Program-made: the position numbers and the translations under genes
Notes under the pieces: model-generated
Told to the model about the DNA's origin: nothing
Database searches by the model: none
The model's input: the letters and a program-made list of their open reading frames with translations, nothing else
In this document: piece after piece, positions 8,005 to 11,999 of the stretch
How positions within the stretch are numbered: position 1 is the stretch's first letter
Layout: each line of letters begins with the position of its first letter
Assembly: GCA_943354835.1 (NCBI GenBank)
Contig: CALRDH010000001.1
Coordinates: 1 to 46,459, forward strand
Reading direction: 5' to 3'
Origin: a candidate division WWE3 bacterium
GTDB lineage: Bacteria; Patescibacteriota; WWE3; 2-01-FULL-39-13
Length of the DNA: 46,459 bases

Positions 8005-9095
8005 TTTAACTTTTCTTCCACAAAATTTTTTATATTTTTTTGAAATTTTTCTTTTGTGAATTTTTTGGCGTGTTTTTTGATGAGCTCGTGATCAAATCCA
8101 ATTTTTTGCAACCTTCGTATTGCTCCTAACAAAGACTTTTCGTTTAGATCATCAAAAAACACGCCCGTCTTATCTTCTTCAACTGTCTCCAAATACCCTC
8201 CACTTTTTAATGCGATAACGGGCTTTCCATATGCCATAGGTTCAATTGCTGCAATTCCAAAATCCTCATTTTTCACTGCACAAACTACTGCTTTACAAGT
8301 TTTATACAAATGATCTTTTGTCTCTTCAGAAATTCTTCCTAACATTTTTATCGAACGATATTTTGATACAAGTTCCAAAAGCGTCTCCTCCTCGGAACCC
8401 GTTCCTGCAATTATTAATGGAATATTATTTTTACCAAATACTTTTATTAAAAAATCTATATTCTTATAACTTTCCAAACGTGAAATTACTAAATACGATT
8501 TGCTATCAATACTCAAAGTTTCGTTTTTAATATTTTGAGAATCAACTTGAGCAAATGGATATATTACTTCCGCATCCCTTTTATAAATTCTTTTTATTCG
8601 ATTTTGAACTTCTTTTGAATTGCATAAAAGAAAGTCTGGTCTTTTTGCGAACTCCTGATCTTTGCGTCGCAGGCAAAAATCAATCGGCCAAAGCAAAATT
8701 TTCATATACCAAGCATTTCGATTTTTTGTTGAGGTCTCGTATCCATATAAAAATCTTGGAGGCGTGTGTATATAACTTATATGAATTTGTTTTTCGTTCG
8801 TTTTAACGCCCTTTGCAAAATGCGCTGTAGAAGAAATCACTAAATCGTATTTTGACAAATCAAGATGCTCAAAATAAAAAGGTAAAAACAAAACTAATAA
8901 TTTTTTTGGAATGTATTTTCCCCAATTTGGAAAAAAGATTTTCGCACCTTTAAAAATTCCCAAAGAATCTAAAAGCTGCTTGTTATATGTCGCAGTATAG
9001 ACATCGGCCTCTGGAAAAACTTCAAAAACAGCGTTTGCTAAAACTTCGGCTCCTCCGTATACATCAAGGTAATCATGAACAATTGCAATTTTCAT
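7986..9095 (-). CDS. GT4-family glycosyltransferase
   Basis: A 369-residue GT-B fold glycosyltransferase. The N-terminal domain starts MKIAIVHDYLDVYGGAEVLA, the classic glycine-rich acceptor/UDP loop of GT4 enzymes. The C-terminal domain has SYLVISRLESYKNIDFLI, PLIIAGTGSEE, the E-x7-E-type donor site in EDFGIAAIEPMAYGKPVIA, and GGYLETVEE. It transfers a sugar from a nucleotide donor, probably for surface polysaccharide or lipid-linked glycans; the acceptor is unknown. Its ATG overlaps the exonuclease stop (ATGA), so the two are translationally coupled although functionally unrelated. Confidence 0.9.
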   Translation of the reverse strand: MKIAIVHDYLDVYGGAEVLANAVFEVFPEADVYTATYNKQLLDSLGIFKGAKIFFPNWGKYIPKKLLVLFLPFYFEHLDLSKYDLVISSTAHFAKGVKTNEKQIHISYIHTPPRFLYGYETSTKNRNAWYMKILLWPIDFCLRRKDQEFAKRPDFLLCNSKEVQNRIKRIYKRDAEVIYPFAQVDSQNIKNETLSIDSKSYLVISRLESYKNIDFLIKVFGKNNIPLIIAGTGSEEETLLELVSKYRSIKMLGRISEETKDHLYKTCKAVVCAVKNEDFGIAAIEPMAYGKPVIALKSGGYLETVEEDKTGVFFDDLNEKSLLGAIRRLQKIGFDHELIKKHAKKFTKEKFQKNIKNFVEEKLKWKSAL

Positions 9096-10033
9096 AATAA
9101 TTTAGGAGCAGTTCCTCTAATTTCAATCGACTTCTTTTCAAGCATATCCAACTTTCGATTTAAACTTCGAAATCCAAGCCTGTCAAAAATCCTTTGAACT
9201 TTTGAAACATCAAAATCATGAACTAAACAATCTTTCAAATTAAATTCCATTGGAATATTTGTAATTATAGTCGCAAGTTGCTTGCTCATAAAGGCTTCAT
9301 CTTTATCATCGATTAATTTTTTCTTGACCGAGGCTGACTTAATAGAATCTAAATTATCATAAATATTTTCGAGTGTTCCAAACTGTCCAATTAATTGTTT
9401 TGCCGTGACATCTCCAATTCCCATAACACCTGGAATTCCATCACTTGGATCACCTCGCAAGGCCTTATAATCAATCATCAACTTTGGTTCAAAAGTATAT
9501 TTTTCTTTAAATTTCTCGGAATCAAAAAGCTCGCTTTTAATATATGGAGGCCTTGCGGGCCTGTACACAAAAATCTTGTCATTAATTAATTGCAACAAAT
9601 CTTGATCAGCTGTAGAAATAACAACATCTAAATCTTTTGAAGCAACTGCGGACGCAGTTCCCAAAACATCGTCGCCTTCAAAACCGTTTTGTGTAAGACG
9701 TGGAATATTAAAAGCTTCAATTACTTCGATCACAAGAGGAAGTTGTTCTTTAAAAATATGGTCGTCCTCTGGCTCCATCGAAACACGCGCAAACTGATAA
9801 AGCGGATAAAGTTCCTTTCTAAAAGAAGGCTGATCTTCGCTTTCCCATCCACATGCAATATGTGTTGGATTCAATGTCAAAATCGACTCTAAAAGTGAAG
9901 AAGCAAAACCAAAAACAATATTTGTATGTTCACCAGTTGAAGCAACAAGATCCTTTGGATAAGCATGAAAACTTCGATGCAAAAAATAAAAAGTATCTAA
10001 AAGCAAAAGCTTATCGGAATTAGGCGAAGACAT
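9092..10033 (-). CDS. 5'-3' exonuclease / flap nuclease (PolA N-terminal domain type)
   Basis: A 313-residue stand-alone relative of the 5' nuclease domain of DNA polymerase I. It has LLLLDTFYFLHRSFHA at the start, the acidic metal-site blocks GFEGDDVLGT and ISTADQDLLQL, and the helix-hairpin-helix region LRGDPSDGIPGVMGIGDVTA. It would remove RNA primers and flaps during replication and repair. The reading frame continues upstream into the structured-RNA region, but ATG 10033 is chosen because an extended -10 box ends 6 nt before it and the preceding residues match nothing in the family. No polymerase domain follows. Confidence 0.92.
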   Translation of the reverse strand: MSSPNSDKLLLLDTFYFLHRSFHAYPKDLVASTGEHTNIVFGFASSLLESILTLNPTHIACGWESEDQPSFRKELYPLYQFARVSMEPEDDHIFKEQLPLVIEVIEAFNIPRLTQNGFEGDDVLGTASAVASKDLDVVISTADQDLLQLINDKIFVYRPARPPYIKSELFDSEKFKEKYTFEPKLMIDYKALRGDPSDGIPGVMGIGDVTAKQLIGQFGTLENIYDNLDSIKSASVKKKLIDDKDEAFMSKQLATIITNIPMEFNLKDCLVHDFDVSKVQRIFDRLGFRSLNRKLDMLEKKSIEIRGTAPKLL

Positions 10034-10039
10034 GTAGAA

Positions 10040-10048
10040 AATATAGCA
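10040..10048 (-). promoter_or_regulatory. Extended -10 promoter of the exonuclease unit
   Basis: TGCTATATT on the minus strand (10048-10040) is a TGn-type extended -10 element, ending 6 nt before the ATG at 10033. No good -35 is visible at the usual distance, as expected for extended -10 promoters. A leaderless mRNA is predicted. Confidence 0.48.
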
Positions 10049-10065
10049 TGAAAATGAAAAGGGAA

Positions 10066-10193
10066 CTTCAGACGAAGGGAGGGGGGATAATTGATACGAT
10101 GTCTTGTCGCGTGACAAGAATTTTGTCGATGTTGCCCCCTCCCCGGCTAGTAAGCTCTAGCCAAAAACTGGTACGCCCAGTTTTCTCGTCTGC
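10066..10193 (-). ncRNA. Putative structured RNA of unknown family with its own promoter
   Basis: Between the adenosyltransferase and the exonuclease the minus strand can fold into a closed multi-branch RNA. P1 joins the ends: CAGACGA (10192-10186) with TCGTCTG (10075-10069). P2 is AAAACTGG/CCAGTTTT (8 bp, 5-nt loop, 10184-10164). P3 is GGCTAG/CTAGCC (6 bp, 6-nt loop, 10162-10145). P4 is GGGAGGGGG/CCCCCTCCC (9 bp, 10143-10135 with 10085-10077). P4 encloses a 7-bp hairpin TCTTGTC-ACGC-GACAAGA (10119-10102). The RNA is far richer in GC than its surroundings. A TTGACA-17-TAAAAT promoter places the start at about 10193-10191, exactly at P1. I do not recognise it as tmRNA, RNase P, SRP, 6S or a known riboswitch. 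Helices and promoter are read directly; RNA status is inferred. Confidence 0.6.
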
Positions 10194-10198
10194 GGAAA

Positions 10199-10227
10199 AT
10201 TTTAATATATGAGACATCTAGTGTCAA
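10199..10227 (-). promoter_or_regulatory. Strong sigma70-type promoter for the structured RNA
   Basis: On the minus strand: perfect -35 TTGACA (10227-10222), 17-nt spacer, -10 TAAAAT (10204-10199, 5/6). It lies immediately after the adenosyltransferase stop. The predicted start, about 7 nt downstream, falls on the first bases of the closing helix of the structured RNA, not near any start codon (the next gene begins about 160 nt further on). Confidence 0.7.
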
Positions 10228-10229
10228 TT

Positions 10230-10763
10230 TTATGTTTTCCAAATTGATTCTTCAATTTTTTCCTTGCGGTTTACATATCGTGCCATTACGAATAGCAAGT
10301 CGGAGAGCCGATTTAAATATGGTAAAAATGTTTCGATAGAAGGACTTTTTAATGAAACTGCATATCGTTCGACTTTACGAGCAAATGTCCTTGCATAATG
10401 AATGTGGGAAGAGGCAATACAGCCTCCAGGAAGAATAAAATTAGTAAGCCGAAGTAATAGCTTTTCATAATCATCAATCGTTTTTTCAATGTTTTCCACC
10501 TCTTTAAGCGAATCAAACTTTAACTTTCCGCCTGCACAAATTGCGCCAACAACAAATAAATCTTTTTGTATTTCTTCTAAAACATCTATATCTTGAGAAA
10601 AATCAAAATCCGCCTCATACAAATTACTAACACAAATTCCAACATAAGAATTCAACTCATCCAAAAGCCCAATAAATTCAACAACCTTTGAATCCTTTTG
10701 AACCCTTTGACCATTTGCTAAACCAGTCGTTCCCTTATCACCAGTCCTTGTATAAATAGACAT
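10230..10763 (-). CDS. Cob(I)alamin adenosyltransferase, PduO/MMAB type
   Basis: Transfers the adenosyl group of ATP to cob(I)alamin to make adenosylcobalamin. The N-terminal ATP-binding signature YTRTGDKGTTGLANGQRV is intact. VEFIGLLDELNSYVG and the helical bundle region up to ARTFARKVERYAV and LNRLSDLLFVMARYVN complete the family pattern at normal length (177 residues). In organisms with so reduced a metabolism, the likely consumer of the cofactor is an adenosylcobalamin-dependent (class II) ribonucleotide reductase; that gene is not in this window, so this is an inference. No cobalamin riboswitch is visible upstream. Confidence 0.93.
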   Translation of the reverse strand: MSIYTRTGDKGTTGLANGQRVQKDSKVVEFIGLLDELNSYVGICVSNLYEADFDFSQDIDVLEEIQKDLFVVGAICAGGKLKFDSLKEVENIEKTIDDYEKLLLRLTNFILPGGCIASSHIHYARTFARKVERYAVSLKSPSIETFLPYLNRLSDLLFVMARYVNRKEKIEESIWKT

Positions 10764-11390: not shown

Positions 11391-11999
11391 TTATTTCTCC
11401 AGACTTTGCCAGAGTGCAATTGAGCCAAAGGTTTTGTAGGGCTCCCATTTTTTAATTATTTCTGTAATTTGAGATGTAGTCGGATTTTTTAATCCATATA
11501 CTTTTTCTATTCCATTTTTGAGTCCTAAGTCTTTGTATGAAAATATGTTTGGCCGTTTTAATGTGAACATAAGAAACATTTCTGCTGTCCATGTTCCAAT
11601 TCCTTTTATTCTTGTGAGTTCTTTTGTAACATCTTCTTCACTTAATTTATCTAGATCATTTAGGAATACTTCGCAATTTTGAACTTTCCCCGCAAGGTCT
11701 TTGATGTATGAAACTTTTGCCCATGACAAACCAACATCTCGAAGGCTTTGATCTGAATACTTGAGGATACTTTCTGGATTAACATTTAATTCGTTGGAAC
11801 TAAAAAGAATTAGGAACTTTTTATATATTGCGGCAGCAGCTTTCGAAGAAAGCTGCTGCCCTACAATATCCCTACACAAAGCTACAAAATATCTATCAGG
11901 CAAAACTTCACCACCAAACCAATTATTAAGATTTACTTTTTTTAAAATTTCAAAAATCAAAGGATCAGAAGACTTAAAATGATTTAATATTTTATCCAT
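11391..11999 (-). CDS. DNA-3-methyladenine glycosylase II (AlkA-like, HhH-GPD)
   Basis: Base-excision repair glycosylase that removes alkylated purines. The helix-hairpin-helix is LTRIKGIGTWTAEMFLMF (about residues 128-145), and the catalytic aspartate is D157 in SYKDLGL, 15-20 residues later as in AlkA/HhH-GPD enzymes. DIVGQQLSSKAA is the typical early helix. At 202 residues it lacks the N-terminal TBP-like domain of E. coli AlkA, as do many AlkA2-type proteins. The ATG at 11999 overlaps the FMN reductase stop (TAATG); a TTG two codons earlier is a weaker alternative. Confidence 0.9.
   Translation of the reverse strand: MDKILNHFKSSDPLIFEILKKVNLNNWFGGEVLPDRYFVALCRDIVGQQLSSKAAAAIYKKFLILFSSNELNVNPESILKYSDQSLRDVGLSWAKVSYIKDLAGKVQNCEVFLNDLDKLSEEDVTKELTRIKGIGTWTAEMFLMFTLKRPNIFSYKDLGLKNGIEKVYGLKNPTTSQITEIIKKWEPYKTFGSIALWQSLEK

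What the first reader, a model, noticed from the sequence alone, without database searches (positions are those of the whole stretch)
10066..10227. Promoter-driven structured RNA of unrecognised family between the adenosyltransferase and exonuclease genes
The minus strand carries a TTGACA-17-TAAAAT promoter whose predicted start falls on the first bases of a closed multi-helix fold. The end-closing helix is CAGACGA/TCGTCTG, followed by an 8-bp hairpin, a 6-bp hairpin and a 9-bp G/C-rich helix enclosing a further 7-bp hairpin. All helices are Watson-Crick and the segment is GC-rich in an AT-rich genome. There is no coding frame with family similarity. Direct observation: helices and promoter. 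Inference: it is a stable ncRNA, or a structured leader for the downstream exonuclease-glycosyltransferase unit. It does not show the signatures of tmRNA, RNase P, SRP, 6S or a cobalamin riboswitch, despite the adenosyltransferase next door.
Basis: partly seen in the sequence, partly recalled or inferred. Interest (0 to 1): 0.8.

Follow-up and report, generated by a model that had tools for sequence, protein, structure and literature searches.

The report
Orphan promoter-driven structured RNA gene
In one uncultivated bacterium, a short stretch between two ordinary genes looks like a small gene for a tightly folded RNA, with its own strong start signal and no relatives found; it is probably a young, species-specific RNA, but no transcript has been seen.

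Summary
Minus strand 10192-10069 folds into a closed four-way junction (z -7.5; 0 of 200 shuffles as stable), the most stable of 17,667 windows of 140 nt in this genome. It starts at the predicted +1 of a TTGACA-17-TAAAAT promoter, a grade found 42 times in 1.77 Mb of strand. Rfam gives no match.

The 'leader of the exonuclease gene' reading is weakened: the exonuclease ATG has its own -10-like box 6 nt upstream, as in relatives (6-7 nt). In three relatives with the same gene order the spacer is 31-50 nt and lacks the element; here it is 196 nt. It is lineage-specific, single copy, with no covariance-model hit elsewhere, so compensatory changes could not be tested.

The genome's 6S-like locus has the same layout, so I favour an independent orphan small RNA gene (0.5).

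The main rival is a functionless palindrome cluster (0.3). This genus carries a large excess of perfect palindromes, mostly inside genes, not seen in genes in the examined parts of two more distant relatives; five windows of the sister genome fold even more stably. That side observation may be more interesting than the finding.

The parts
10222..10227 (-). -35 hexamer TTGACA
10199..10204 (-). -10 hexamer TAAAAT, 17-nt spacer
   Evidence: 42 sites of at least 11/12 in 1,768,510 strand positions, masked stretches included
10069..10192 (-). proposed structured RNA, about 124 nt, predicted start about 10192; 3' end not defined by any terminator found
10186..10192 (-). closing helix, 5' arm CAGACGA
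10069..10075 (-). closing helix, 3' arm TCGTCTG
10164..10184 (-). 8-bp hairpin, 5-nt loop
10145..10162 (-). 6-bp hairpin, 6-nt loop
10077..10143 (-). long arm: 9-bp G/C helix, internal loop (largely paired, with three G-U, on the + strand), inner 7-bp hairpin
10040..10048 (-). separate exonuclease promoter element, extended -10-like TGCTATATT, 6 nt before the ATG
   Evidence: read by eye; relatives' spacers
9092..10033 (-). 5'-3' exonuclease gene (PF02739, PF01367), downstream neighbour, not part of the RNA
10230..10763 (-). cobalamin adenosyltransferase gene (PF01923), upstream neighbour

Best explanation
A lineage-specific small RNA gene. A near-consensus sigma-70 promoter directly behind the adenosyltransferase stop codon starts a minus-strand transcript at about 10192. 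Its first seven bases pair with bases about 118-124, closing a four-way junction of two short hairpins and one long arm. Sealing the 5' end in a helix would protect the RNA. No U-tract terminator was found, so I infer that the 3' end is set by processing next to the closing helix, while the exonuclease is made from its own promoter downstream. The exposed loops or the A-rich internal loop of the long arm would be the contact sites of a trans-acting regulator. Shown: promoter match, predicted fold, placement, absence in three relatives, the exonuclease's own -10-like box. Inferred: transcription, 3' processing, regulatory role.
For: Fold z -7.46, 0 of 200 shuffles; lowest MFE of 17,667 genome windows; lowest of 672 promoter-anchored 150-nt folds in G000 plus the held part of G002, with the closing helix beginning at +1; lowest 140-nt fold of the 42 strong-promoter sites, -56.6 against -43.6 for the next. 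Promoter grade seen 42 times in 1,768,510 strand positions, so chance placement of its +1 within a few bases of the helix start is of order 1e-4 (my arithmetic). Of 6 other such sites that face no ORF of 80 aa and lie in none, 2 score as known RNAs when searched with a relaxed threshold: 6S (E 3.8e-6, 36.9 bits, gathering 46.4) and T-box (E 9.9e-15, 69.4 bits, gathering 93). The 6S-like locus has the same layout: TTGACA promoter, RNA, no terminator found, then an ORF that reads like ribosomal protein L33 (recalled) with TAGAAT 6 nt before its ATG. Helices are joined by zero or one base.
Against: No transcript data. No homologue in any genome searched: 1 of 45 (class), 1 of 379 (phylum), 0 of 353 and 0 of 392, the single hits being the window itself, so no covariation. 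The sister species lacks it. No terminator on the minus strand. The plus strand folds better, and all three wobble positions are G-U on the plus strand. The genus makes many palindromes of no evident function, and 5 of 12,125 windows of G002 fold more stably than this one. Of the 6 other non-ORF strong promoters, 4 had no Rfam match at gathering (not searched relaxed), and one of them, C2:165912, appears to lead into a short ORF. The 6S-like locus itself had no BLAST hit in the held part of G002.
Confidence: 0.5

Rival explanations
1. A DNA-level palindrome cluster without RNA function. Replication template switching, unusually active or poorly repaired in this genus, builds perfect GC-rich inverted repeats; several accumulated in this spacer, and the promoter is a coincidence or serves the exonuclease gene.
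For: Perfect inverted repeats (arm 12 or more, loop 3-12) inside CDS: 31 in G000 (five synonymous-codon shuffles: 0-2) and 38 in the held part of G002 (shuffles: 0), against 0 in the parts examined of G001 (331 kb; shuffles 0-2) and G028 (400 kb; shuffles 0). One G000 case (C1:261321, pgk by my reading) has one arm identical to G002 and nine changes in the other, as template switching would give. The sister's spacer at the same place holds a different palindrome. The listed helices are Watson-Crick, so both strands fold. Template switching making RNA stems is described in PMC8794818 (abstract and opening text read).
Against: The palindromes counted are single hairpins with arms of 12-21 bp; this one is a closed junction of 6-9 bp helices. 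The promoter's +1 falls on the closing helix.
Confidence: 0.3
2. A structured 5' leader: transcripts from 10192 run through into the exonuclease gene, and the fold governs their stability or translation.
For: No minus-strand terminator found between 10192 and the exonuclease start; same strand; the exonuclease frame is open upstream to a TTG at 10117.
Against: The exonuclease has its own -10-like box 6 nt before the ATG and no Shine-Dalgarno; such boxes sit 6-7 nt before the ATG in G002, G001 and G004, which lack the element.
Confidence: 0.13
3. A non-autonomous mobile element (REP/REPIN or MITE) in one copy, with CAGACGA as terminal repeats.
For: Absent from relatives at the same site; a REP-type tyrosine transposase (Y1_Tnp, 37.4 bits, cut-off 23) lies elsewhere in the genome with palindromes beside it.
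Against: Single copy by BLAST and covariance model; no 11-mer shared with the transposase region; no clear target-site duplication.
Confidence: 0.05

Closest known systems
6S RNA (RF00013), the candidate locus of this same genome
   Same: Near-consensus TTGACA promoter, structured RNA of 120-160 nt, no terminator found, next ORF with a -10-like box 6 nt before its ATG
   Different: 6S is one long hairpin with a central bubble (recalled); this is a four-way junction, and Rfam gives no 6S match
Retron msr-msd RNA
   Same: Short helix joining the two ends, two short hairpins, then one long hairpin (architecture recalled)
   Different: No reverse transcriptase match in the genome (0 of 1 at E up to 10; about 72 kb masked)
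REP/REPIN palindromes with RAYT transposases (PMC3733652, abstract read)
   Same: GC-rich palindromic insertion in a spacer; the genome has such a transposase
   Different: Not repeated, larger than the 20-40 bp of REPs, no 11-mer shared with the region of the transposase
Coding palindromes of Nematomorpha mitochondria (PMC6649704, abstract read)
   Same: Many perfect inverted repeats in a lineage, as seen around this element
   Different: That concerns protein-coding mitochondrial genes; the element here is intergenic with a promoter

Membership tests
Any Rfam 15 family (tmRNA, RNase P, SRP, 6S, cobalamin riboswitch and others) | Match to the family covariance model | tested here: not met
   Only two tRNAs at gathering threshold in the window; only mir-335 at E 0.32, 17.3 bits against 64, in 9980-10300
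Retron | Reverse transcriptase beside the RNA | tested here: not met
   No PF00078 match in the genome at E up to 10; the search rings in 4 of 14 control genomes. About 72 kb of the genome is masked
Retron | Terminal helix, short hairpins, long hairpin | tested here: met
   the family description is recalled
REP/REPIN | Many dispersed copies | tested here: not met
   Single copy
MITE | Terminal inverted repeats with target-site duplication, several copies | tested here: not met
   7-bp terminal repeats, no clear duplication by eye, single copy
Cis-regulatory leader of the exonuclease gene | Lies in the gene's mRNA and is kept in relatives | tested here: not met
   Element absent in three relatives with the same gene order; exonuclease has its own -10-like box. 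Whether it lies in an mRNA could not be tested; readthrough not excluded
Stand-alone structured small RNA | Own promoter and stable fold | tested here: met
   by sequence and prediction only:
Stand-alone structured small RNA | Discrete transcript | not testable with these tools
   no RNA data
Stand-alone structured small RNA | Covariation among homologues | tested here: inconclusive
   no homologue found
IS110-type bridge RNA | Adjacent IS110 recombinase | not tested
   no search for IS110 was made; the two adjacent genes are a cobalamin adenosyltransferase and an exonuclease

The most novel reading that the evidence does not exclude
A newly born RNA gene: in a genus whose replication makes perfect palindromes at an unusual rate, template switching built a multi-helix junction beside a promoter, giving a folded RNA gene that its sister species does not have. 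That would be a natural case of de novo origin of a structured RNA by template switching.
Probability: 0.15. Interest if true: 0.8.

Novelty: new member of a known kind. Interest (0 to 1): 0.42.

Why it matters
If transcribed, it is a species-specific structured RNA gene in WWE3, a lineage for which one literature search for WWE3 together with noncoding RNA returned no paper. It also sits in a genus whose genomes are rich in perfect palindromes, which would make the birth of structured RNAs by template switching open to direct comparison between sister species.

Tried and rejected
Rfam at gathering and relaxed thresholds: no RNA family. BLAST against phages and plasmids: nothing. Two exact patterns in viral contigs: 13 stretches for one, none for the other; the 13 gave no model match and were dropped. 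BLAST hits in G002 and G004 (E 0.09-0.96) are 14-17 nt matches that I take for chance; the G002 one lies just after an ORF in unrelated sequence. One search folded the wrong flank for minus-strand loci and was redone. Retron reading rejected for want of a reverse transcriptase. REP reading rejected for want of copies and of shared sequence. A single-sequence covariance model finds only fairly close homologues, so its empty results are weak; the four searches over more than 40 genomes also used stricter filters. In one search one of the ORFs listed as holding a palindrome (24,160 aa) is an artefact of masked bases; the later counts leave out frames with masked bases. Only the 6S-like and T-box sites were searched at a relaxed Rfam threshold, chosen for their look; the other four non-ORF promoter sites were searched at gathering only.

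Papers: PMC6649704 and PMC3733652 abstracts and section lists, PMC8794818 abstract and opening text; all others seen only as search listings. Two searches returned no paper.

Mended: counts of the control promoters, the stricter-filter searches, the windows of G002 that fold more stably, helix linkers, and the extent of the relatives examined. 

Full report
Setting. The window lies at G000:C1:1-46459 of an 884,255-base genome in 8 contigs, rated 100% complete, of which 72,000 bases are masked. The neighbours are a cobalamin adenosyltransferase upstream and a 5'-3' exonuclease followed by a glycosyltransferase downstream, all on the minus strand.

The observation. The minus strand folds at -61.1 kcal/mol against a shuffled mean of -35.35 (z -7.46; 0 of 200 as stable); the plus strand at -72.2 (z -8.52; 0 of 200). 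On 17,667 windows of 140 nt over the genome (plus strand, step 50, masked bases included) the element has the lowest energy, -63.2, and ranks second after GC adjustment. In the held 610 kb of G002, 5 of 12,125 windows are lower, down to -76.5; those I could read consist of palindromes, some beside tRNAs. Promoters of 11/12 or better occur 42 times in 1,768,510 strand positions. Among 672 sites of at least 10/12 in G000 and the held part of G002, the element has the lowest promoter-anchored fold, and its closing helix starts at +1.

Not a leader in the usual sense. The gene pair adenosyltransferase-exonuclease stands in G002 (same genus), G001 and G004 (same family). Their spacers are 50, 31 and 43 nt, against 196 nt here. 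In all four the exonuclease ATG follows 6-7 nt after a -10-like box (TATATT, TATATT, TACAAT, TATAAT for G000, G002, G001, G004; read by eye). No Shine-Dalgarno tetramer stands in the last 20 nt in three of the four; G001 has AGGA, one base before the ATG and so too near. This fits leaderless transcription (inference). The element is therefore an extra unit put between a stop codon and an existing promoter. G002 has an unrelated palindrome in the same place.

Homologues. One copy in the genome. With a covariance model made from the single sequence: 1 of 45 genomes of the class, 1 of 379 of the phylum (both the window itself), 0 of 353 and 0 of 392 of two further classes. The model is specific but not sensitive, so distant relatives may be missed. 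Covariation could not be tested.

Controls inside the genome. Of the 42 strong promoters, 6 others face no ORF of 80 aa or tRNA within 300 nt and lie in no long ORF. Two of these, searched at a relaxed threshold, score as 6S RNA (E 3.8e-6) and a T-box (E 9.9e-15), both below the gathering scores. The other four gave no Rfam match at gathering, and one appears to lead into a short ORF. So the promoter is a hint and not proof. The T-box region is 84% identical in G002; the 6S-like region had no BLAST hit in the held part of G002. The 6S-like locus copies the layout seen here: no terminator is found after it, and the next ORF has TAGAAT 6 nt before its ATG.

The competing reading. The genus carries a great excess of perfect inverted repeats. 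In CDS of 150 aa or more, arms of at least 12 with loops of 3-12 number 31 in G000 (596 CDS; five synonymous-codon shuffles give 0-2) and 38 in the held part of G002 (444 CDS; shuffles give 0). The examined part of G001 has 0 in 231 CDS (shuffles 0-2) and that of G028 0 in 283 (shuffles 0). Of the 38 such repeats in G000 as a whole, 25 aligned fully with G002, 11 had no hit and 2 were not covered. Of the 25, 10 keep every pair in G002, 3 lose one pair and 12 lose two or more. One pair of orthologues (C1:200766) keeps 14 of 14 pairs through changes on both sides, and one (C1:261321) has all nine arm changes in a single arm. Template switching explains such patterns (PMC8794818, abstract and opening text read). 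So this structure may be a by-product of the same process. Against that, its design is different: a closed junction of 6-9 bp helices with zero or one base between them, with the promoter's +1 on the first base of the closing helix.

Strand. The promoter points to the minus strand; no promoter-like site of 9/12 was found on the plus strand in 9900-10400. The long arm pairs better on the plus strand, where three positions are G-U; three positions are too few to decide.

Verdict. An orphan small RNA gene at 0.5, palindrome by-product at 0.3, leader at 0.13, mobile element at 0.05; the remainder is unassigned.

Noticed in passing
Genus-wide (G000, G002); in the window 11832-11860: Large excess of perfect GC-rich palindromes inside protein-coding genes: 31 and 38 in CDS against 0-2 and 0 in synonymous shuffles, and none in CDS of the examined parts of two more distant relatives. 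In 9 of 25 aligned cases both arms are unchanged between the two species while the flanks differ by 9-23%. REPs inside genes are reported for several species (PMC3733652, abstract), but the arms listed look mostly unlike one another. Assembly artefact was not excluded.
   Followed up: partly
G000:C1:261321-261361 and C1:200766-200797: A palindrome whose one arm equals the sister's sequence while the other carries nine changes, and another that keeps 14 of 14 pairs through changes on both arms.
   Followed up: partly
G000:C2:35613-36260: A Y1_Tnp (RAYT-like) transposase gene with GGGCCAGGCCC-type palindromes on both sides, one overlapping the gene's end; a similar palindrome stands at C1:230549. 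G002 has three Y1_Tnp matches and a recurring GGGTAGCCC palindrome.
   Followed up: partly
L101 10911-11061 (G000:C7): Probable 6S RNA below Rfam's gathering score (36.9 of 46.4 bits), upstream of an ORF that reads like ribosomal protein L33.
   Followed up: partly
L053 1620-1916 (G000:C1:281620-281916): Probable T-box leader below the gathering score (69.4 of 93 bits), the region 84% identical in G002.
   Followed up: partly
L140 2949-3068 (G002:C26): A LOOT RNA (RF03000, E 2.9e-13) in the sister species.
   Followed up: no
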